A stretch of 54,564 bases of DNA. It comes from Candidatus Hinthialibacter antarcticus (GTDB lineage Bacteria > Hinthialibacterota > Hinthialibacteria > Hinthialibacterales > Hinthialibacteraceae). This document shows positions 2,783-38,102 of the stretch, piece after piece. Location: contig JAVCCE010000074.1 of NCBI GenBank assembly GCA_030765645.1, forward strand, positions 105,551 to 160,114, in the 5' to 3' direction. The translations under genes and the position numbers were made by a program. The first letter of the stretch is position 1, and every line of letters starts with the position of its first letter. The notes beneath the pieces were generated by a model. It was not told the DNA's origin and ran no database searches. It worked only from the letters and a program-made list of their open reading frames with translations.

Positions 2783-3373
2783 ATGGATTTAATGCAAAAA
2801 GGAAAACAACACGCCCAGGCCGGGCGCTTCGAAGAAGCGTTAGACGCTTTTTTATTGGCGCTGGAAAATGACAAAGAAAATCCCGACCTGCACTTTTACC
2901 TAGGCTTGAGTTTCAGTTCGCTTGAGCAATTTGAATACGCCAAACATCATTATGAAACAGCCTTGATGTTGGACCCCAATCACCAAAAGACCAAATTGGT
3001 GTTTGACAGCGTCCAGAACGTTGACGCCAAAACCCCGCCAGAACGCAAAATGCTTCTCAAAGCCGTCGCCAAAACCCGCAAAGAACAAGAAGGCGGCCAA
3101 ACTGAAGACAACGCAAAGCCGCAATCCGTAGAACCAGACAACGCTTCTTACGATGAACCCTCTACGGATGAACCCCGCATCAAACTGACGGACGACAAGT
3201 GGGAGCAGGCCTTTCCCGCAGGCAATTTAAAACCCCGCAGAAAGTCGCCAACTCAGTCATCCGTATGGATGCGCCTTGTCTGGACCCTCATTGGAATCGC
3301 GGCGGTCGGCGCGGCGGTCTACTACGCTCTCAACTATTTTTATCCCCCCATAGTCCAGTCTGTAATCCAGTAG
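2783..3373 (+). CDS. TPR protein with C-terminal membrane anchor
   Basis: 196 residues. At residues ~3-70 are two TPR units ('GKQHAQAGRFEEALDAFLLAL' and 'PDLHFYLGLSFSSLEQFEYAKHHYETALML'). Residues ~90-155 are charged and low complexity. Residues ~165-190 form one hydrophobic helix ('LVWTLIGIAAVGAAVYYAL') that should anchor the protein with the TPR part in the cytoplasm. There is no signal peptide. TPRs are scaffold modules, so only a structural or adaptor role can be stated. A related layout, TPR first and membrane segments late, is seen at 51661-52485. Confidence 0.75.
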   Translation: MDLMQKGKQHAQAGRFEEALDAFLLALENDKENPDLHFYLGLSFSSLEQFEYAKHHYETALMLDPNHQKTKLVFDSVQNVDAKTPPERKMLLKAVAKTRKEQEGGQTEDNAKPQSVEPDNASYDEPSTDEPRIKLTDDKWEQAFPAGNLKPRRKSPTQSSVWMRLVWTLIGIAAVGAAVYYALNYFYPPIVQSVIQ

Positions 3374-3428
3374 TGAGAGATTTTCAAAAATTAACCCAAA
3401 ATTAATGGTCGCTTGCCCCGCTTTTGTG

Positions 3429-3456
3429 ATATTACTCTCTACGTAGTAAGTAATAT
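3429..3456. promoter_or_regulatory. 28-bp near-palindrome (candidate operator)
   Basis: Outer arms ATATTACT and AGTAATAT are perfectly complementary and enclose the self-complementary octamer CTACGTAG. Only the two positions on each side of the octamer (CT and TA) break the symmetry. It lies between the TPR gene end (3373) and the regulator start (3828). It could be an operator for the adjacent GntR/LacI-type regulator, but it is ~370 bp from that start, so the link is inference. Confidence 0.4.
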
Positions 3457-3748
3457 TCGCTCAGAATGTATCCAGACGGAACCAATTGTCTTTGTCGTGC
3501 GACAAATATATCAAAGGCAGTTGTTTTTTCCCGTCCTTCGCAACAAATGCGACATTTACGTAAGATTTTTGCAATTCGTCGCAAGGAGGTATGGTTTTTC
3601 ACCAGGTGAAGCGCATCGCTCAGTACGCTCCTGAATATGAGTAAATGATTGAGCATTTCGCAAACAGAAATTCCAGTCAAAAAAAAGTGAAAAAAGTTGT
3701 AGCCAGCAACCTTTCGTCAACGATCTCCGTTGTGACGGAACTTTTATC

Positions 3749-3783
3749 AAAAATGTTCAGCAAGCGTAAATTCGAACATTTTT
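3749..3783. promoter_or_regulatory. 10-bp perfect inverted repeat just before the regulator gene
   Basis: AAAAATGTTC and GAACATTTTT flank a 15-base spacer, ending 44 bp before the GTG start at 3828. As DNA it could be an autoregulatory operator of the GntR/LacI-type protein. As RNA it would be a stem-loop in the leader; the run of T in the descending arm also allows a weak terminator. Confidence 0.4.
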
Positions 3784-3827
3784 CTGAAAATATTATCGAG
3801 TCGTCATTCTAACCAAGAGGTGATTTT

Positions 3828-4976
3828 GTGAAAAACTTTGACTCTCTGCGCGTTCCAAAATACGTGCGTTTAATGATCCATCTAAAAGACCAAATTGATA
3901 AAGGCGTTCTCAAACCGGGCGACCCGCTCGCCACCCGCGAAAAACTGATGAAAGAACACGAAATCAGTTTAAGCACCGTCACCCGCGCGGTTTCTGAACT
4001 CGAACGCCAAGGCTGGCTGATCTCGCGCCAAGGCAGCGGCACCTTTGTCGCCAAACGAAATCCCCAAGAGCCAAGCGACTCGGATGAACCGCTCTTAGTG
4101 GGTTTGCTGGCGCCCAACAACTGCCGCTTCTCACAAGAAGCCGTGGCCGAACTGATCCATGACGGGTCTCAACAAAACATTCAGTTTCTGGCCATGTTTT
4201 GCTCCGGCGACCAGGAAGACGAACTCAACCAAGGCCGCCTCTTAATGGAAAAAGGCGCACAAGCGCTGGTTTGGAGCCCCATCCAACCCAAGCGCCATGT
4301 CAGCGTCGCGTCCTTATTCGGCAAGAACGAACTGCCCGTCATTTTGTGTGAAAAAACCACCGACCAAATTGTGTCGCCATGGTATTGCGTTCGCAGCGAC
4401 TATTTCGGCGGGATGAATAAAGCGCTCGAACATTTGTTCAGCCTGGGGCATCGCCGCATCGCCTATTTTGGCCCGAAGAACAGCGAAAGCGATTTCGGCC
4501 CGGTTCCCGAACGCTGGAACGCCTATAAAGACGCCATGAAACAACACAACTGTTGGGACCCGGATACATTGACCTTCCACCCGACGGTGTTGCGCGACTG
4601 GACGCAAAACCGCAGCCGCATCGAAGCCATTTTCCGCAGCGACAATGCGCCCACCGCCGTGATTGGCTTTAATGACCTGATTGCACTCGAAACCCTCAAC
4701 GTATTACGCACGCTCAATCTGCCCAACATTAACGACCTCGCCCTCATGGGGCACAGCGATTCAACAACCGGGCAGTATTGCCAACCGCGACTGAGCACCG
4801 TTGCAACGTCGCTCGCGGAATACGTCGACGCCATTCTGCGGATTTTAAAAGCGGAGTTTGCCGGTGAAGCGAAAACAGATGCGGTACAGCGGGAGTACAT
4901 CATCCCCCAGCGCTTAATCCTGCGGGAATCGACCCTCTCCCGCCAAAATAATCACTTGAAACCGCAGGAAGCCTAA
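3828..4976 (+). CDS. GntR-type HTH / LacI-type sensor transcriptional regulator
   Basis: 382 residues. Residues ~10-75 are a GntR winged helix ('VPKYVRLMIHLKDQI', 'LATREKLMKEHEISLSTV', 'ELERQGWLISRQGSGTFV'). Residues ~85-365 are a periplasmic-binding-protein-like LacI/GalR effector domain ('LVGLLAPNN', 'HLFSLGHRRIAYFGP', 'TAVIGFNDLIALETLNVL', 'LALMGHSD', 'LSTVATSL'). This is the AraR-type architecture, normally a repressor released by a sugar. The GTG start is supported by AAGAGGTGA seven bases upstream. The next gene, a GHL10 glycosidase-like protein on the other strand, is convergent, so the target is not obvious from position. The dyads upstream may be its own operators. Confidence 0.9.
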   Translation: MKNFDSLRVPKYVRLMIHLKDQIDKGVLKPGDPLATREKLMKEHEISLSTVTRAVSELERQGWLISRQGSGTFVAKRNPQEPSDSDEPLLVGLLAPNNCRFSQEAVAELIHDGSQQNIQFLAMFCSGDQEDELNQGRLLMEKGAQALVWSPIQPKRHVSVASLFGKNELPVILCEKTTDQIVSPWYCVRSDYFGGMNKALEHLFSLGHRRIAYFGPKNSESDFGPVPERWNAYKDAMKQHNCWDPDTLTFHPTVLRDWTQNRSRIEAIFRSDNAPTAVIGFNDLIALETLNVLRTLNLPNINDLALMGHSDSTTGQYCQPRLSTVATSLAEYVDAILRILKAEFAGEAKTDAVQREYIIPQRLILRESTLSRQNNHLKPQEA

Positions 4977-4997
4977 TCGGACAACAATACGATACGA

Positions 4998-6203
4998 TTA
5001 CGATTCATCATCGCCTGTTGGGGTTTGCGCCTCAGCAGGCGATTTGGTTAAGAGCTCTTGGACCATCTCTTCGCGCCAGATGGTGCGAACGCGACTGGCT
5101 TTTGAATTTGGCTTGTGATTTTTGTATAACGCAGAATACGCAAACAGCGCCGCCCCCCCAAACTTCTCATCTGCAGTCGCCTTTAATTGCGCTTGCAGAA
5201 TGTCCGGCGAGATCGACGTAGCGAGCAACCCGGGAACCATGCGCCAGTTCCATTGCGTCCCCAAGTGTAATTTCAACGCATCCAATGATTCCTGATATTT
5301 CGCCGCGCTGCGTTGGTACACCATCGGGACAGCCCAGTCGATCCATTCATTCTGCAACCACAGCGACGGGTCCTGGCCTTTTTCTTCGGTAGCTTTATTG
5401 ATATCAGCAAAAAACGTCGCGCTCAGTTCGATGTCAGCATTCACCGCTTTGGTTTGCTTTCGGATTAACTGCAACGAGTCGCCCACCTGGTCGCGTTTAA
5501 AACGGCTCCATTCGTCTGAATCATGGCGAGGCGAGCGTTTGTATTGTTGTTTAAAACGCGCCACGCTGGTTTTGTCGAACGAAAAATTGCGATACGCGCC
5601 GAGCTCTTTGTTGCCCGGGTAGCGAATGTAATCCATGTGGATGCCGTCGAGGTCGGGGTAGAGTTCGACCATTTCTTTCATCACGGCAGCGGTGTGTTTT
5701 TGCACCTCTGGAATCCCGGGGGAAAGAAACGAATAAAACGCTTTGGTCGGCCACATAAAACTACCGTGATGATCGACCATAAACCAACTGCGGTGGGTCG
5801 TCCATAACTGGCGGGCTGACTTGGGTGGGGCGTCGCCGCCGCGCCATCCGGGAAACACATTGACCCAGGCGTGAAGCCGCAGCCCGGAGGCGTGCGCGGC
5901 GTCGATGGCGGTCCGCAGCGGGTCCCATCCAGGGTCTTTCCCGGTCGAACGCGCATCGTCGCTGGTGAGTTCCCACGCCCAGGGTTCGAGTTTGGAGGGA
6001 TAAAACACCGTTGCGTTTCCGCGAACTTGAAACAACACGTCCGATGCGTTAAGCGCTTTGGCGTTTTCAATAATGACGCGAATGTCCGCCGCTGTTTTGA
6101 AATCCCAACGGGTGACCCAAATCGCCCGCCGCGAATCTGCGTCCGCCTGCAATGAACTGACAATCACAACGAACGTAATCAGGCAAATTGTTTGTAACTT
6201 CAT
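4998..6203 (-). CDS. Secreted glycosyl-hydrolase-like protein, GHL10 (DUF187/YngK) family
   Basis: 401 residues with a Sec signal peptide (residues 1-22, 'LITFVVIVSSLQADA'). The mature part has GHL10 hallmarks: 'RAIWVTRWDFKTAADI', 'DVLFQVRGNATVFYPS', 'GWDPLRTAIDAAHASGLRLHAWVN', 'LDGIHMDYIRYPG', 'ELSATFFADI' and 'WIDWAVPMVYQRS'. This is a TIM barrel related to glycoside hydrolases, with the acidic 'HMDYIRYP' strand in the active-site region. The substrate is unknown; cell-envelope or polysaccharide glycans are likely. It is convergent with the GntR/LacI regulator. Its promoter side faces the 210-bp repeat array, whose first unit starts 27 bp upstream of its ATG. Confidence 0.85.
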   Translation of the reverse strand: MKLQTICLITFVVIVSSLQADADSRRAIWVTRWDFKTAADIRVIIENAKALNASDVLFQVRGNATVFYPSKLEPWAWELTSDDARSTGKDPGWDPLRTAIDAAHASGLRLHAWVNVFPGWRGGDAPPKSARQLWTTHRSWFMVDHHGSFMWPTKAFYSFLSPGIPEVQKHTAAVMKEMVELYPDLDGIHMDYIRYPGNKELGAYRNFSFDKTSVARFKQQYKRSPRHDSDEWSRFKRDQVGDSLQLIRKQTKAVNADIELSATFFADINKATEEKGQDPSLWLQNEWIDWAVPMVYQRSAAKYQESLDALKLHLGTQWNWRMVPGLLATSISPDILQAQLKATADEKFGGAALFAYSALYKNHKPNSKASRVRTIWREEMVQELLTKSPAEAQTPTGDDES

Positions 6204-24774: not shown

Positions 24775-24804
24775 AAGAGGGGCGCGTATTGCGCCCCTCT
24801 TTTC
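24775..24804. terminator. Strong intrinsic terminator (bidirectional)
   Basis: AAGAGGGGCGC (24775-24785), loop GTATT, GCGCCCCTCTT (24791-24801), then TTCATT. It ends the Gfo/Idh gene on the plus strand. The minus-strand acyltransferase gene ends ~125 bases away and could also use it. Confidence 0.9.
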
Positions 24805-24926: not shown

Positions 24927-26591
24927 TTATTCAGCGGGTTGCGCGATTGCTGCGCCGCCGCGTTTTTTGCGTCCATTCAACAACGCGCCCACCCAGGTGT
25001 AGCGCACCATCGTCTCATAAATGACCAACAAAAATCCCGTCACCAATACCGTAACCAAAACAAACTTGGCCAGCGCAGGCATTTGCCAGTCGCGAATATA
25101 TGCCTGCACAAAAAAGATCAACGGCAGGTGGGCGATGTAGAGCCAATAGGATGAATCCGAAATATAACGCATCCACTTGCTTTCGCGGCTGAGCAGTCGG
25201 CGAAACAGCCCCATGCAGCCGAAGGTCATCAGCCAGACGTAAGCGACTTGCAAAAGATTATTGATGAATTGTCTCGCGCTTGGAATCAGCGGAATCGCCT
25301 CATTGGGGGCGTGAGTGAATATCATACCAATGGGGAAAATCACCAATATCGCAACCGGCAGCGTCAGCCAGTAGCGCTTGCCTAAGGCGCCTGCCTCGTC
25401 TTTGGCGTCAAAATATAAGGCGCCGAATCCAAAGAAAACCGCGTAATACAACAACACATGCGGCATGGGCAGCAACCCCGCCGAGGTGTCAGAGCCAAAA
25501 GTCGGTTCAATCATAAACAACTGCGGAACCATCGTGAGCGGGACCAGCCACATATACCGTAGCGGCGATAAAATCAGTTTGCTGGATTGGACGTTCCAAT
25601 TCAGCGCGTCTGCGATGAGCGCATAAACCGCGAAGCCAACCACCAGCCAAATGAGAAACCACAAAAACCAGAGGTGTTGAAGCACAGGCGTTGAAAACAG
25701 CAGTCCATACAGGATGCTGAGCACAGGATTTGAGCGTTCTTGTCCGGTGGAGACGCCCAATATTTCGGAAATCTGGCTGCGGCCTTCGTTGATTTTTTGG
25801 GGATCAAATTTTACGTTGACCAGTCCAGCGATGAATTGGGTTGTCCCCATGTCGGCGGTTAACGACTGATGAGACGTTTGTCCATAACTGTTTTTGATGT
25901 CCGCGTCTGCGCCATTTTGCAACAAGACTTTTGCGACTTCGGCCTCGCCGAAAAAAGCGGCGGTGTGCAGCGGGGTTGAACCGTCGCGCACGGGCATGTT
26001 CACGTCTGCGCCCAGTTCAAGTAACAGTTCAACCGCTTCGAGTTGGCCGGTCATCGTCGCCGTCGATAGCGGCGTGATTCCATAAATTTGATCTTGTTGG
26101 TTGATCCCGGCGCCGTCTTCGACAAATGCTCGAATTTTTTCTAAATCGCCGACTCTCGCCGCCGACCAGAGATCAGCGCTTGCTTGCGTAGATACGGCGG
26201 CCTCTTCATCAACGCTCTGGGCGGTCCCCGTTGTCATGGCCCAGCCAATAATCAAATATGACGCGGGAATGATGGTGATAAGACACAACGCGAACGGGAT
26301 AAAAATCCGCCGGAAGCGGTGCCGCAGTAGCGACTTCAGCCCGCGCTTGCGCCATAACATTGCAGTAAAAAATCCGCTGATGAGAAAAAACAGCGGCATG
26401 CGAAAACCATGCAAAAACGCGGGGATCAATCCCAATATATGCGCTTGCTGATTGTCTTGCACCGGCCAAAGCCCCGGGATAAACGATAGCGACGCATGAA
26501 GCGCGATGCCCGACAGCATGGCGATGGCGCGTAGCGCGTCGAGGTCGTGGCGGCGGTCGATGGCGGTAGTTTGCGTGGTCGCGTTATTCAT
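24927..26591 (-). CDS. Acyltransferase-3 (OpgC/MdoC-like) membrane protein with an inserted ankyrin domain
   Basis: 554 residues. The N-terminus is a classic acyltransferase-3 start: 'RRHDLDALRAIAMLSGIALHASLSF' with the active-site-type His32, then 'FRMPLFFLISGFFTAML' and 'RRIFIPFALC'. Between membrane helix 3 (~98-117) and the next helix (~300) lies a soluble insert (~138-285) with three to four ankyrin repeats ('GITPLSTATMTGQLEAVELLLELGADVN', 'DGSTPLHTAAFFGEAEVAKVLLQNGADADIKN'). The remaining ~8 membrane helices follow and end in 'YWLYIAHLPLIFF'. The enzyme should O-acylate a periplasmic or surface glycan; the ankyrin part may bind a protein or glycan partner. It overlaps the ankyrin lipoprotein gene by 8 bp. 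Confidence 0.88.
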   Translation of the reverse strand: MNNATTQTTAIDRRHDLDALRAIAMLSGIALHASLSFIPGLWPVQDNQQAHILGLIPAFLHGFRMPLFFLISGFFTAMLWRKRGLKSLLRHRFRRIFIPFALCLITIIPASYLIIGWAMTTGTAQSVDEEAAVSTQASADLWSAARVGDLEKIRAFVEDGAGINQQDQIYGITPLSTATMTGQLEAVELLLELGADVNMPVRDGSTPLHTAAFFGEAEVAKVLLQNGADADIKNSYGQTSHQSLTADMGTTQFIAGLVNVKFDPQKINEGRSQISEILGVSTGQERSNPVLSILYGLLFSTPVLQHLWFLWFLIWLVVGFAVYALIADALNWNVQSSKLILSPLRYMWLVPLTMVPQLFMIEPTFGSDTSAGLLPMPHVLLYYAVFFGFGALYFDAKDEAGALGKRYWLTLPVAILVIFPIGMIFTHAPNEAIPLIPSARQFINNLLQVAYVWLMTFGCMGLFRRLLSRESKWMRYISDSSYWLYIAHLPLIFFVQAYIRDWQMPALAKFVLVTVLVTGFLLVIYETMVRYTWVGALLNGRKKRGGAAIAQPAE

Positions 26592-27120
26592 TGCCGAACT
26601 TCGCGCCGTGTTCCTTCAAAATATCGGCGACAGACCCCCGGGTGCGTTTGATGCGATCTAGGTCAATCTCCATTTGCAATATGCCGCCGACCATGGCGTA
26701 AACATCTTCTAATTCCTGGCTCCATTCGGCGCCGACCGCATCAAGCGGGGTCGTGCCGATGTTGTCTTTCGGGTTCGGTTCGGCGCCGTTTTCTAACAGC
26801 AACTTCACGATATTCGGATGGCAAAACAGCGCGGCGAGGTGTAAAGCGGTTGAACCATTATTGTTCTTTTGGTCTAACGCTGCGCCCTTTAAAATTAACA
26901 CTTCGGCTGCATCGGGCTGACCAAACAAGGCTGCCACAATCAAAGGCGTCGAGCCGCCGGTTGGCTCGAGGGCGTTGATGTCTGTTCCCGCTTTGACGTG
27001 TTGTTGAATGGCGGCGATGTTTCCTTCTCCCGCCGCTTGCCAGATGTCGATTTCCGGCGGTTGTTCGGCGCATCCAACGGCAAAAATCATTACGGTGAGA
27101 TATAGCAATGCCTTTTTCAT
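26584..27120 (-). CDS. Ankyrin-repeat lipoprotein
   Basis: 178 residues. 'MKKALLYLTVMIFAVGC' is a lipoprotein signal with the modified Cys at 17. Three ankyrin repeats follow: 'DIWQAAGEGNIAAIQQHVKAGTDIN', 'GSTPLIVAALFGQPDAAEVLILKGAALDQKN', 'GSTALHLAALFCHPNIVKLLLENGAEPNPKD'. The tail 'MEIDLDRIKRTRGSVADILKEHG' is also found, diverged, at the end of the ankyrin insert in the next gene. The two proteins align along this whole module. Translation is probably coupled (8-bp overlap), so the lipoprotein and the acyltransferase insert may work together in the periplasm. Confidence 0.85.
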   Translation of the reverse strand: MKKALLYLTVMIFAVGCAEQPPEIDIWQAAGEGNIAAIQQHVKAGTDINALEPTGGSTPLIVAALFGQPDAAEVLILKGAALDQKNNNGSTALHLAALFCHPNIVKLLLENGAEPNPKDNIGTTPLDAVGAEWSQELEDVYAMVGGILQMEIDLDRIKRTRGSVADILKEHGAKFGNE

Positions 27121-30397: not shown

Positions 30398-30955
30398 ATG
30401 TTGTCTGGCCGCCTCGAAGATTACGCAGACCGTTGGCCTCACGACCGCCCCATCGAAGATGACCGGGGCAAGTGGCGAGTCGCTTACGTCAAGCCGCGCA
30501 ACGAAAAAGCGCTGGCGATTGATTGCCAACAAGCGGGCGTTCCTTACTATTTACCGTTATACGTCAAACGCAAACGCCGCAATGACAACAATAAGTATCG
30601 CAAAAGCGTGATGCCGTTGTTTCCGGGGTATTTTCCGTTCGTTGACACAGAAGACGGCAAAAGCAAATTACAACAAACCAACCGCGTCGTTCACATTCTT
30701 GATATTAACGATCAGGAAGCGTTTGTACGCGATCTCGAGCAAATTCGCCACGCGGTGAACTCCGGCATGGCGGTCGACGCCGTCCCGTATATGGAAGAAG
30801 GCCAAAAGGTCCGCGTAAAAGAAGGCCCGTTACAGGGACTTTGCGGAATCGTTAATCGGGTGGACGCGAACCACGCCCGGTTGGTCATCACGGTTGACGC
30901 GTTAAAAATGGCGGTTGAAGTTGAACTCGAAAGCGAGTCAGTCGAAGCACTTTAG
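30398..30955 (+). CDS. NusG-family transcription factor paralogue (RfaH/UpxY/LoaP-like)
   Basis: 185 residues. Residues ~25-115 are a NusG N-terminal domain ('GKWRVAYVKPRNEKALAIDCQQAGVPYYLPLY', 'KSVMPLFPGYFPFV', 'VHILDI'). Residues ~130-180 are a KOW domain ('YMEEGQKVRVKEGPLQGLCGIV'). Housekeeping NusG sits next to secE and rplK; this one does not, and the loop 'KRKRRNDNNKYRKS' is typical of specialised paralogues that act as antiterminators on one or a few long operons, often polysaccharide ones. The gene is alone between a promoter and a terminator, so its target is elsewhere or one of the envelope clusters nearby. Its TAG stop coincides with the end of a family-C element. Confidence 0.85.
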   Translation: MLSGRLEDYADRWPHDRPIEDDRGKWRVAYVKPRNEKALAIDCQQAGVPYYLPLYVKRKRRNDNNKYRKSVMPLFPGYFPFVDTEDGKSKLQQTNRVVHILDINDQEAFVRDLEQIRHAVNSGMAVDAVPYMEEGQKVRVKEGPLQGLCGIVNRVDANHARLVITVDALKMAVEVELESESVEAL

Positions 30956-31185: not shown

Positions 31186-31545
31186 CTACACGGAGGGCTT
31201 TGCGCTTTCCATCTTCTTGCGTTCGACATAGGCGTCGTAGATCGAGTAAACATAGAGCACGACGCTGGCGACCGCTAATACGCAGAAGGTATAAAACTCA
31301 TCGCTGAGAAATTGCAGCGAATCGGCGGCTTGCTCTACATTGCCCTGGCCAATCTCCAAAAAATACATCGCGAGAAAATACCCGATCGGAATCAACAACG
31401 CCAACGAAGCAATCAAAAACACGATGCCGACAAACACCGCTTTGGCCCACTGGCGGTTATACAACTGGCCCGCGCCGGGAACCACCAGGGCGGACAACAA
31501 GGCGGCTTTCATGGCTTCGCTGCGGGCGGTCGCGGCGTTGTTCAT
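31186..31545 (-). CDS. Small membrane protein of the TM2 / 'PGAGQLYN' type
   Basis: 119 residues from the ATG at 31545 (AGGAG upstream). It overlaps the kdsB stop in ATGA, so it is coupled to kdsB. 'LLSALVVPGAGQLYNRQWAKAVF' is the TM2-like motif, followed by hydrophobic segments 'GIVFLIASLALLIPIGYFLAMYF' and 'FCVLAVASVVLYVYSIYDAYVER'. Such proteins are small integral membrane proteins of unknown role. The operon link suggests a connection with envelope synthesis, but this is inference. Confidence 0.75.
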   Translation of the reverse strand: MNNAATARSEAMKAALLSALVVPGAGQLYNRQWAKAVFVGIVFLIASLALLIPIGYFLAMYFLEIGQGNVEQAADSLQFLSDEFYTFCVLAVASVVLYVYSIYDAYVERKKMESAKPSV

Positions 31546-32306
31546 TCGGGGTTCTCCTGTAGTTTGTACGCATTGCGTACGCGCTCCACGTCTTCGGGCG
31601 TGTTGACGCCCGGCCACGGGTGGCTGGTGGAGATCATTTTAATGCGTACGCCGTGTTCGATGGCGCGCAGTTGTTCGAGGCTTTCTGACTTTTCCAACAT
31701 GCTGCGCGGCCAACAGGCGTAGCGCTGCAGGGTGGGGCGGCTGAATGCGTAGGCGCCCAGATGCAGCCAATAGTTGGCGGGGCGCTGCGCCCATTCGATG
31801 TCTTCTTTGCGGCGCCAAAATGGAATCGGGGCGCGCGAAAAATACAGCGCAAAATCTTCGTGGTCGATGACGACTTTCACCTGGTTGATGTCTTCCACAT
31901 CGGCGCGTTCGTGCAGCGGCGCCATCAGCGAGGCCATCTGTACGCCGGGCGCCTCTTCAAAACACTCGACCAGCCGGTCGAGGTCGGTGGGGTCGATCAA
32001 CGGCTCGTCGCCTTGCAGGTTCATAATGACGTCGTGGTCGAGATTGAGGTCTTCAAGCACCCGCGCCACCCGGTCGGAACCGGTGGGCAACGAGGGCGGC
32101 GACATCACCGCTTCACCGCCGAAACTGTCGACCGCTTGTTTGATGCGCTCGTCATCGGTGGCGACGATCACCCGATCGAGGCGCCGGGCGCGCGCGGCTT
32201 TTTCGTAGACGCGCTGAATCAGCGGGCGTCCGCAAATGTCGATCAACGGCTTGCCGGGCAGGCGCACCGACGCATAACGGGCGGGAATCACGCAGACAGT
32301 CTTCAG
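31542..32306 (-). CDS. kdsB: 3-deoxy-manno-octulosonate cytidylyltransferase (CMP-Kdo synthetase)
   Basis: 254 residues if begun at the CTG at 32306, which gives 'KTVCVIPARYASVRLPGKPL', the standard family N-terminus. GGAGGA lies five bases before the CTG, whereas the first canonical start (GTG at 32291) is 20 bases from it and would remove the first beta strand. Family motifs: 'RVIVATDD', 'LPTGSDRVARVL', 'VIMNLQGDEPLIDP', 'YFSRAPIPFWR' and 'HLGAYAFSRPTLQRY'. It activates Kdo with CTP for the inner core of LPS, which indicates a Gram-negative outer membrane. The stop overlaps the next start in ATGA. Confidence 0.93.
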   Translation of the reverse strand: MKTVCVIPARYASVRLPGKPLIDICGRPLIQRVYEKAARARRLDRVIVATDDERIKQAVDSFGGEAVMSPPSLPTGSDRVARVLEDLNLDHDVIMNLQGDEPLIDPTDLDRLVECFEEAPGVQMASLMAPLHERADVEDINQVKVVIDHEDFALYFSRAPIPFWRRKEDIEWAQRPANYWLHLGAYAFSRPTLQRYACWPRSMLEKSESLEQLRAIEHGVRIKMISTSHPWPGVNTPEDVERVRNAYKLQENPE

Positions 32307-35499: not shown

Positions 35500-36687
35500 A
35501 TGACGTCGCGAATTTTGGTCCCATGCATTATCGCCGCCGCGCTGGCGGTCGTCGCGCTGTTCGCGTTACAAACGGCGCCGCCCGCCGACCCGTTCCCCAA
35601 CTGGCTGGCGACCATCGAATCACAGGAAGCCTCGCTCGACGCCTATCAAGAGGCCGGGCGCTATCTGGCCTTTTTGGGCGAAGCGCTTAACGGGCAATCG
35701 GACCCTGATGTACGCCGCCAACTCGCCGACCGCCATTTTTTGTTGGGACAGGCGATGTTCAATCACAAAACGCCTGCGCATTTAGATTACGCCAATCAGC
35801 AGTTCTTACGCGCAGTGACGATTTTTCCATCGCTGCGGCACGGCTGGCCGTTTTTTCTTGGCGCCGAAGCCTTCGAGCGGCGCGACCAGGACGAGCGCGC
35901 GATTGAGTGGTACCAACAAGCGGCGCAACATGACTACGGACAACTGGCGCTGGATGCGCGCTATCGCATCGCCCTGGTGGAGATCCGCCAACCCACGCCG
36001 CCGCAGATCGACCCCCGCCCGGTCTATGATTTTCTGCGCTTTGTTTCGACTGACCCATTCAACGAAATCACCACCTTTCGAGGCGCGTCATGGGGCGAGC
36101 GCCCCGAGGCGTTGTATCTGCATTCACTCGCGGCGCTGCGCAACGGCGACCCAGACGCCGCCGCGCGTATGATGCAAGGCTATCTGCGTTTGCGGCCCGA
36201 CGACCCCAGCGCAGCGTATCATCTCGACGCGATGTCGGGTTGGAAGCGCGAGGGCGCGTATCCCGCCGACGGAAACCTGCTGCGTTCGTTTATCGCGCCG
36301 CGCGCGTTTGACGACAACGGCCCGCTGTTAACCAACAACGCCGAGTTATTTTCCGACGCCTATTTTCATGCGCCGCCCCAACACGTCGCGCTGGATATTG
36401 AGTTTATTGCGCCGAATGATGGAACCCTCAATTGGACGGTCTGCTTCAACGGAGAATGCCAGACGCTTTCACTGCCCGCGCGGGAGCCTAACCGGTCTAC
36501 GCTTGCGGGAAAACAGGTCATCGTCAGCGCCGTCTTCAACAACGTGCTACAACGCAACCACATTCTCATTCAGCCCACGCTGACGCAGGCCGCACAAGAT
36601 GAATCTCAAAACCGGGTGCGGCTATTGAAACTCACATTGCTTGAACCCGCCTCCACCTCATCTGACACGGTGGAGACGCCCCGTTGA
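35500..36687 (+). CDS. TPR-containing membrane-anchored or exported protein
   Basis: 395 residues. An N-terminal hydrophobic segment ('ILVPCIIAAALAVVALFAL', residues 4-22) is an anchor or signal. Several TPR-like helices follow ('YQEAGRYLAFLGEALN', 'LDYANQQFLRAVTIFPSLRHGWPFFLGAEAFERRDQDERAIEWYQQAAQ', 'LHSLAALRNGDPDAAARMMQGYLRLRPDDPSAAYHL'). The last ~120 residues are beta-rich ('GTLNWTVCFNGECQTLSL', 'HILIQPTLTQ'). The stop overlaps the flippase TTG start in TTGA. This suggests a role with the flippase in exporting an envelope polysaccharide. Confidence 0.7.
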   Translation: MTSRILVPCIIAAALAVVALFALQTAPPADPFPNWLATIESQEASLDAYQEAGRYLAFLGEALNGQSDPDVRRQLADRHFLLGQAMFNHKTPAHLDYANQQFLRAVTIFPSLRHGWPFFLGAEAFERRDQDERAIEWYQQAAQHDYGQLALDARYRIALVEIRQPTPPQIDPRPVYDFLRFVSTDPFNEITTFRGASWGERPEALYLHSLAALRNGDPDAAARMMQGYLRLRPDDPSAAYHLDAMSGWKREGAYPADGNLLRSFIAPRAFDDNGPLLTNNAELFSDAYFHAPPQHVALDIEFIAPNDGTLNWTVCFNGECQTLSLPAREPNRSTLAGKQVIVSAVFNNVLQRNHILIQPTLTQAAQDESQNRVRLLKLTLLEPASTSSDTVETPR

Positions 36688-38102
36688 AAACCATTATCCG
36701 CAACACCCTTTTTATGAACCTCTTCAATGTATTTGGCCGGGGTTCAGGATTGATTCGTTATGTCTTGCTGGTGTATTTTCTGACCGACCCCGACTATGCG
36801 CTCATCACCTTCGGCTTCAGTTTTGGCCGTCTCTGCCGCCACTTTATGGACTGGGGCCTCGATAATCTCATCACCCGCGAAGGCGCGCGCGATCCGGCGC
36901 TCATTCCGTCATTTCTCTTACACGGTTTTCTTTTCAAACTGGCGTGGGGCAGTCTGTTTTTTCTCGCGGGGTTTTTCTATCTCTACGGCGCCCGCTCGCT
37001 CAGTCCGTCTGAACTCGTCGTGGTGTATATCTCGATGTGCGGATCGGCGCTGCTGTCGCTGACGGGGGTATTGCGCAGCGGCTATAGCGCGGTCGAGCGC
37101 ATGGAATACATCTTTTATACCAACGCCCCGGTGCGCACCATTTCGCTGGCGCTGTTGGTCTTTGCGCTGCTCGCCAAATTGCCGGTCGCGTATGCGGCGG
37201 CGGCGGTCGCGGTTGAACCGTTGTTGTGGCTGGCGCTGTTGGGGTGGTTCGCCAAGGGCGCGTTTCCATTGCGCGGCGCGGCGTTTTCATGGAAGACCAC
37301 CGTCTTCTTGTTTCGCGAATCCTGGGCGCTGGCGGTTTATGGTTTCTTCAATATTTTTTACCTGAGCCTCGACGTGATTATGATCGAAGCGCTGATGGGC
37401 GGACGCGATGCGGTGGGGCCGTACACCATCGCCAGTTTGTTGGTGGAGGGCGTCACTCTCTTGTTGACGGGATACCTGATGGCGGCGTTCCCGGTTTTTT
37501 CGCGGCTCTACCAGACCGATGAAGACGCCTTTCGTCGGTTGTTCCGGCGCTCGGTGACGGTGTTGTTTGCGATGTCGTTTCCGCTGTCGGTGTTGCTATG
37601 CGTATGGCCGCACGAATGGATCAACCTGATCCGCCCCGCCAACCCCATCAGCGGGCAGGTGCTGGCCATTCTTGCGCTGAACCTCAATTTCGCCCTGTTA
37701 AATACGCTGATGATCGTCGTCTTCACTGCGCGTAACCGCCAGCGCTGGCTGGTGAGTTTTACTGCGATCGCGGTGGTGGTTTCGTTTGGCGCCAACTGGT
37801 TGTTGATTCCTCTTTATCATCAGGTCGGCGCCGCGATGGCGACGCTGTTCTCTCAAGCGTTGTTGTTTTTCATTATGGGCGGCGTCGGCTTGCCGCTGTT
37901 CGGGCTGCATGTCCCGGTCGCGCGGGTTGCCGGGCTAGCGGCGATTACGTTGACTTCCGCAGCGGCGGCGTATTGCGTCCCGGGTTTGCCGGTCTTGCTG
38001 GTTCCATTTATTTTTGGTGGATTTTGGCTCGTGCAAGCCAAACTCTTCAACGTCATTTCCATTGATGAAATCCGCCGATTGACGCAGGCCGCCCAGCCAT
38101 AA
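36684..38102 (+). CDS. Polysaccharide/lipid-linked oligosaccharide flippase (MOP superfamily, Wzx-like)
   Basis: 472 residues with 12-14 membrane helices. N-terminal 'FMNLFNVFGRGSGLIRYVLLVYFL' is typical of polysaccharide_synt/MviN-type flippases. 'YGFFNIFYLSLDVIMIEALMGGRDAVGPYTIASLLVEG' and 'LMAAFPVFSRLYQTDEDAFRRLFRRSV' follow the standard repeat pattern. It starts with TTG overlapping the TPR gene stop. It would move a lipid-linked glycan across the inner membrane for O-antigen, capsule or a related polymer. No polymerase gene is adjacent, but an epimerase follows. Confidence 0.9.
   Translation: MKTIIRNTLFMNLFNVFGRGSGLIRYVLLVYFLTDPDYALITFGFSFGRLCRHFMDWGLDNLITREGARDPALIPSFLLHGFLFKLAWGSLFFLAGFFYLYGARSLSPSELVVVYISMCGSALLSLTGVLRSGYSAVERMEYIFYTNAPVRTISLALLVFALLAKLPVAYAAAAVAVEPLLWLALLGWFAKGAFPLRGAAFSWKTTVFLFRESWALAVYGFFNIFYLSLDVIMIEALMGGRDAVGPYTIASLLVEGVTLLLTGYLMAAFPVFSRLYQTDEDAFRRLFRRSVTVLFAMSFPLSVLLCVWPHEWINLIRPANPISGQVLAILALNLNFALLNTLMIVVFTARNRQRWLVSFTAIAVVVSFGANWLLIPLYHQVGAAMATLFSQALLFFIMGGVGLPLFGLHVPVARVAGLAAITLTSAAAAYCVPGLPVLLVPFIFGGFWLVQAKLFNVISIDEIRRLTQAAQP

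What the first reader, a model, noticed from the sequence alone, without database searches (positions are those of the whole stretch)
24927..27120. Acyltransferase-3 with an ankyrin domain inserted between membrane helices, next to a paralogous ankyrin lipoprotein
The enzyme at 24927-26591 has ~150 extra residues with ankyrin repeats in a loop after the third helix. The neighbouring lipoprotein (26584-27120) aligns with the whole insert from 'DIWQAAGEGNIAAI'/'DLWSAARVGDLEKI' to 'RGSVADIL'/'RSQISEIL', including the non-ankyrin tail. The genes overlap by 8 bp. This suggests duplication and capture of a neighbour module, and possibly a periplasmic complex in which two related ankyrin surfaces hold a substrate or each other.
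Basis: partly seen in the sequence, partly recalled or inferred. Interest (0 to 1): 0.72.

Follow-up and report, generated by a model that had tools for sequence, protein, structure and literature searches.

The report
Ankyrin module in membrane acyltransferase loop
A bacterial membrane enzyme thought to decorate surface sugars carries a protein-binding ankyrin module in the loop over its pore, next to a gene for the same module as a separate lipoprotein, and this module turns up in many unrelated exported enzymes, so it looks like a reusable docking part that had not been noticed.

Summary
The enzyme is an OpgC/MdoC-like acyltransferase-3 with intact RX10H and RXXR motifs. Its insert is a complete module of three ankyrin repeats plus a three-helix cap (the "non-ankyrin tail"), in the TMH3-4 loop, which charge distribution places in the periplasm. 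It is not an oddity: I found 29 such proteins in 28 genomes (Planctomycetota, Poribacteria, Verrucomicrobiota, the window's family), some with two modules in tandem. Full-length copies also end secreted CotH-kinase proteins (71 of 85 Poribacteria genomes have modules; nearly all non-acyltransferase loci read there are CotH), a sulfatase, cytochromes and an anti-sigma-like protein. Other ankyrins score far lower and lack the cap. The lipoprotein is a true relative, but not a recent copy of its neighbour: its cap is the other subtype, and its closest relative is a free-standing module beside an insert-less acyltransferase in a Planctomycetota genome. So the module is fused, free, or (window and one relative) both. 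Most likely it docks partners or acceptors at the pore mouth. A direct insert-lipoprotein complex and pore gating are untested. New variant of a known kind.

The parts
26584..27120 (-). Lipoprotein gene (178 aa): signal peptide with lipobox cysteine C17, then one ankyrin module (residues about 25-172) with the long-type cap
   Evidence: ORF; Pfam Ank_2 66.8 bits; AF2 pLDDT 93.4; GGAG about 8 nt before the ATG
24927..26591 (-). OpgC/MdoC-like acyltransferase-3 (554 aa) with an ankyrin module in the TMH3-4 loop; R21-X10-H32 and R92-X2-R95 intact
   Evidence: ORF; PF01757 129 bits; NF003014 155 bits, below its cut-off of 338; AF2 pLDDT 86.6, pTM 0.82
25752..26177 (-). Ankyrin module inside the enzyme: three repeats plus three-helix cap (protein residues about 139-280)
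   Evidence: module coordinates; 192 bits to the module profile, 168 bits to a profile without window sequences
25752..25886 (-). Cap ('tail') of the insert, short type
   Evidence: 46 bits to the short-type cap profile, 6 bits to the long-type
26611..26760 (-). Cap of the lipoprotein, long type
   Evidence: 41 bits to the long-type cap profile, 7 bits to the short-type
26584..26591 (-). 8-bp overlap ATGAATAA: start of the enzyme gene inside the end of the lipoprotein gene
   Evidence: sequence
24775..24801 (-). Hairpin about 125 nt after the enzyme's stop codon, possible end of the two-gene operon (also readable on the + strand for the facing gene)
   Evidence: consensus scan; the number of such sites in the region is not above chance

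Best explanation
The two genes form an operon for an inner-membrane acyltransferase and an exported partner. The 10-helix core takes an acyl group from cytoplasmic acyl-CoA through its pore and passes it to an acceptor, probably a glycan, on the periplasmic side. An independently folding extracytoplasmic ankyrin module (three repeats plus a three-helix cap) has been inserted in the TMH3-4 loop above the pore, where it serves as a docking surface that holds the acceptor or an acceptor-presenting protein at the active site. The lipoprotein is the same module in free form, a second docking subunit for the same enzyme. Shown: anatomy, homology, conservation, operon-like layout, and the free module beside an acyltransferase in a second phylum. 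Well-founded inference: periplasmic location. Inference only: transferase activity, nature of the acceptor, docking role.
For: Catalytic and acyl-CoA motifs are conserved in the 28-row family alignment. The insert sits where AT3 proteins have their long TMH3-4 loop (PMC9833829). Loop 2 carries 5-8 K+R against 0-2 in loop 1, so TMH3 runs outwards and the insert is outside. Every other setting of the module that I read is predicted to be exported: after CotH kinase domains, sulfatase and c-type cytochromes, and after the TM segment of an anti-sigma-like protein. The insert occurs in 28 genomes of several phyla. The three free-standing full-length modules found all lie next to an AT3 gene: window, G002 and, in Planctomycetota G076, about 20 nt after an insert-less AT3. 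In the window's phylum the two genes are present together in 2 genomes and both absent from 12. Precedent: periplasmic ankyrin AnkB, needed for optimal catalase KatB activity, and the ank-katE operon of Leptospira (cited in PMC7567364 and PMC3534063).
Against: No substrate, activity or binding datum exists. 26 of 28 genomes with the fused enzyme have no free module beside it and none was recognised elsewhere in them, so the lipoprotein is not needed by the family in general. If the lipoprotein is sorted to the outer membrane (+2 residue Ala), its short tether could not reach the inner membrane. Gene neighbours give no common pathway.
Confidence: 0.55

Rival explanations
1. Gate: the module acts on the pore plug. 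In OafB the TMH3-4 segment is a re-entrant loop that blocks the acyl-CoA pore; here the module is tethered directly to that segment, so binding of a ligand or of the lipoprotein would pull or hold the plug and switch acyl transfer on.
For: The module lies inside the loop that plugs the pore in the published OafB model; the model keeps a helix at 289-300 between module and TMH4; the site is the same in all members.
Against: The low-confidence linkers at 129-138 and 283-288 suggest loose mechanical coupling; insert size varies from one to two modules without change of the core; no coordinates or domain-domain error were available to test contact.
Confidence: 0.2
2. Mutual binding: insert and lipoprotein bind each other, forming the two-surface complex that the first reader proposed.
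For: Same module, overlapping genes, joint presence and absence in the phylum.
Against: Most fused enzymes have no free partner; in G076 the free module accompanies an enzyme without an insert, so insert-lipoprotein contact cannot be the general mode. Not modelled.
Confidence: 0.12
3. Spacer or accretion: the module spreads between exported genes as a stable, neutral domain and has no specific role in this enzyme.
For: It occurs in many unrelated enzymes and in tandem arrays, and one family member (L051) does without it.
Against: W142, F213 and the cap Trp are mostly conserved across phyla; the modules keep a complete fold over large distances; free modules sit beside AT3 genes three times.
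Confidence: 0.13

Closest known systems
OpgC/MdoC succinyltransferase of osmoregulated periplasmic glucans (E. coli b1047)
   Same: Best curated match of the enzyme core (NF003014, 155 bits); same AT3 layout, RX10H, RXXR and HLWFL motifs.
   Different: Score below the curated cut-off of 338; OpgC has about 23 residues where this family has about 177 with an ankyrin module; no MdoG (PF04349) in any of 14 genomes of the phylum, so the acceptor is not a known OPG.
AT3-SGNH fusions such as OafB and OatA
   Same: An extracytoplasmic domain is added to an AT3 core and works at the periplasmic mouth of the pore (PMC9833829, PMC9558356).
   Different: SGNH is catalytic, C-terminal and needs an 11th helix; here a non-enzymatic ankyrin module sits inside the TMH3-4 loop.
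AnkB with catalase KatB (P. aeruginosa) and ank-katE (Leptospira)
   Same: Exported ankyrin protein linked to a periplasmic enzyme whose activity needs it (literature cited).
   Different: Different enzyme; no fused form described; membership of AnkB in this capped module family was not tested.
CotH-kinase proteins of Poribacteria with C-terminal ankyrin arrays
   Same: Same capped module, mostly 155-193 bits, up to three tandem copies.
   Different: Module is at the C terminus of a secreted kinase-fold protein, not in a membrane loop. I found no paper that describes it.

Membership tests
Acyltransferase-3 (PF01757) | Pfam match above curated cut-off | tested here: met
   129.2 bits against 31
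Acyltransferase-3 (PF01757) | RX10H in TMH1 and RXXR at TMH3 | tested here: met
   R21/H32, R92/R95; invariant or nearly so in the family alignment
Acyltransferase-3 (PF01757) | Ten transmembrane helices | tested here: met
   AF2 model: helices in an order that fits ten TM segments around the insert; assignment by eye
Acyltransferase-3 (PF01757) | Acyl transfer to an extracytoplasmic acceptor | not testable with these tools
   needs biochemistry
OpgC/MdoC equivalog (NF003014) | Score above the curated cut-off | tested here: not met
   155 bits against 338
OpgC/MdoC equivalog (NF003014) | OPG synthesis genes in the genome | tested here: not met
   PF04349 absent in 14 of 14 genomes; control E. 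coli positive
Ankyrin repeat domain | Curated repeat models and fold | tested here: met
   Ank_2 63.5 and 66.8 bits; Foldseek of the lipoprotein model to DARPins, rmsd about 1.5 A over 150 columns
Capped extracytoplasmic ankyrin module (defined here) | Full-length match including the cap, above generic ankyrins | tested here: met
   143-168 bits against at most 94 for others, with a profile free of window sequences
Bacterial lipoprotein | Signal peptide with lipobox cysteine | tested here: met
   FAVGC17 in the window, LALGC in G002, judged by eye; acylation not testable
AnkB-type enzyme partner | Needed for activity of the neighbouring enzyme | not testable with these tools
   adjacency only

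The most novel reading that the evidence does not exclude
A general extracytoplasmic docking module, widespread in Poribacteria and Planctomycetota, has been built into the pore-plug loop of a transmembrane acyltransferase so that binding of an external partner opens or closes acyl-CoA access: a ligand-gated transmembrane acyl transfer system, supplied with fused and free versions of the same sensor.
Probability: 0.15. Interest if true: 0.8.

Novelty: new variant of a known kind. Interest (0 to 1): 0.52.

Why it matters
How AT3 proteins without an SGNH domain recognise acceptors, and whether they need partner proteins, are open questions in the field (stated in PMC9558356). This family offers a natural experiment: the same module fused into the pore loop, free beside the enzyme, or both. 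The module also links AT3 enzymes with CotH kinases, sulfatases and cytochromes in little-studied phyla, so one structure with a bound ligand could explain many exported proteins now annotated only as ankyrin repeat proteins.

Tried and rejected
Recent local duplication of the neighbour insert: opposed by cap subtype and nearest relative, though AU tests never reject it (p 0.13 to 0.41). The first module tree, with few taxa, placed the lipoprotein weakly with the G002 insert; better sampling changed that. Membership in OpgC: cut-off and OPG genes not met. No AT3-like solved structure was found by sequence with an insert-less relative, and the listed Foldseek hits of the whole enzyme were ankyrins only. 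Gene neighbourhoods gave no shared pathway. Plasmid search for lipoprotein relatives found only partial ankyrin matches that stop before the end of the cap. Literature: no paper joining AT3 and ankyrin in the open-access library.

Full report
Observation. The lipoprotein has a ribosome-binding-like GGAG and no promoter-like site was found by consensus. The enzyme is an AT3 protein (129 bits) with an ankyrin match at residues 140-233, and the lipoprotein is mostly ankyrin. They align over 154 residues, E 5e-23, tail included.

What the insert is. AlphaFold2 with a 28-row alignment gives pLDDT 86.6 and pTM 0.82. The insert folds as three helix pairs and a cap of three helices (240-243, 248-257, 264-278), then a helix at 289-300 before TMH4. 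The lipoprotein model (pLDDT 93.4) shows the same plan, with cap helices at 125-130, 135-148 and 154-170, and superposes on DARPins over 150 columns at about 1.5 A. I therefore read the 'non-ankyrin tail' as a fourth repeat with an added helix; this is inference from secondary structure and alignment length, as I did not have coordinates.

Specificity. A profile of the module trained on 31 copies from other genomes scores the two inserts at 168 bits and the two lipoproteins at 143-150 bits over the full length, while other ankyrin proteins in the phylum reach at most 94 bits and do not match the whole cap. A cap-only profile finds the inserts and lipoproteins and no other ankyrin protein with E below 1 among 1031 targets.

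Distribution. The fused enzyme occurs in the window, in G002 (same family; deposited as Candidatus Omnitrophota, L017), and in Planctomycetota, Poribacteria and Verrucomicrobiota: 29 proteins from 28 genomes were read with the insert at the same place. Four have two modules in tandem (L053, L054, L055, L068), L052 has an extra repeat, and G002 keeps what looks like a remnant of a second copy. One relative within the family tree lacks the insert (L051), and more distant ones never had it or lost it (L023, L024, L012, E. coli OpgC). Whether L051 is a loss is not settled (AU p 0.26).

Other homes of the module. Searching with the module rather than the enzyme changed the picture. In the Poribacteria phylum set, 71 of 85 genomes have strong module matches; the loci read there that are not AT3 are CotH-kinase proteins with one to three modules at the C terminus, apart from one with four modules and a SnoaL-like end and one truncated case with a weak CotH match. 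In Planctomycetota it also ends a sulfatase (L158), two c-type cytochrome proteins (L160, L166; CXXCH motifs by eye) and a single-pass anti-sigma-like protein after a sigma factor gene (L136). All these settings are exported by signal peptide, domain type or topology, which supports a periplasmic insert independently of the charge rule (5-8 K+R in loop 2, 0-2 in loop 1).

Origin of the lipoprotein. Caps come in two subtypes that differ by five residues. The neighbour insert is short (46 bits against 6), the lipoprotein long (41 against 7). The closest relative found is the free-standing 184-residue module of G076 (Planctomycetota): 39% identity and 120 bits, against 32% and 82 bits for the neighbour insert, with 97/89 support in a 63-row tree. 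In G076 it follows, by about 20 nt, an AT3 gene without an insert. Thus the free module accompanies AT3 genes in two phyla, and the window and G002 hold both forms. The AU test of a local clade gives p 0.13, so a local origin is disfavoured, not excluded. With three free loci in all, the pairing is suggestive; by rough reasoning a chance same-strand neighbour of an AT3 gene would be rare (a few AT3 genes among several thousand), but I did not compute this.

Mechanism. Published work models AT3 as a pore in which acyl-CoA reaches through the membrane, with the TMH3-4 segment re-entrant and blocking the pore in OafB (PMC9833829). Motifs for this are intact here. Ankyrin modules are binding surfaces, so the simplest reading is a docking platform at the pore mouth, fused or free. 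Gating through the plug is possible because of the place of insertion, but the low-confidence linkers speak for a loose tether. OPGs are unlikely acceptors, since MdoG is missing from the phylum. Nearby polysaccharide genes exist (flippase-like 36684-38099, CTP transferase 31545-32291) but not in the operon.

Verdict. A real, conserved and apparently undescribed domain architecture of a known enzyme family, built from a module that is far more widespread than the finding suggested.

Noticed in passing
L131-L135, L137-L157 (Poribacteria genomes): Secreted CotH-kinase (PF08757) proteins with one to three C-terminal copies of the same capped ankyrin module; 71 of 85 genomes in the phylum set have strong module matches. 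G417 has two such genes side by side (L132).
   Followed up: partly
L136:1989-2879 and 2998-5001 (Pirellulaceae G018): Sigma-70 gene, then a single-pass anti-sigma-like protein ending in a capped ankyrin module, then a PSCyt1/DUF1592 protein whose N terminus RRHDIDALRVILFGLPIWLHY resembles AT3 TMH1 with R-X10-H, as if the anchor had been taken from an AT3.
   Followed up: partly
L177:3244-4985 (G076, Planctomycetota): Insert-less AT3 plus free module between an alpha-L-fucosidase-like gene and two sulfatase-like genes (both named by eye); G002 also has an alpha-L-fucosidase beside its pair (L017:3148-4782, Pfam).
   Followed up: no
L158:949-3420: Sulfatase (PF00884) with C-terminal capped ankyrin modules.
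   Followed up: no
L160:1133-3067 and L166:1-1968: CXXCH cytochrome / MauG-like proteins with a C-terminal capped ankyrin module.
   Followed up: no
L138:934-3180 (G433): Secreted protein with four tandem modules and a SnoaL-like C-terminal domain.
   Followed up: no
L022:4962-6667: The AT3-ankyrin gene of G018 is split by a frameshift inside the ankyrin part; sequencing error or decay.
   Followed up: no
window 30398-30952: Looks by eye like a NusG/RfaH-type antiterminator as found ahead of surface-polysaccharide operons; no Pfam hit at E 1e-8.
   Followed up: no
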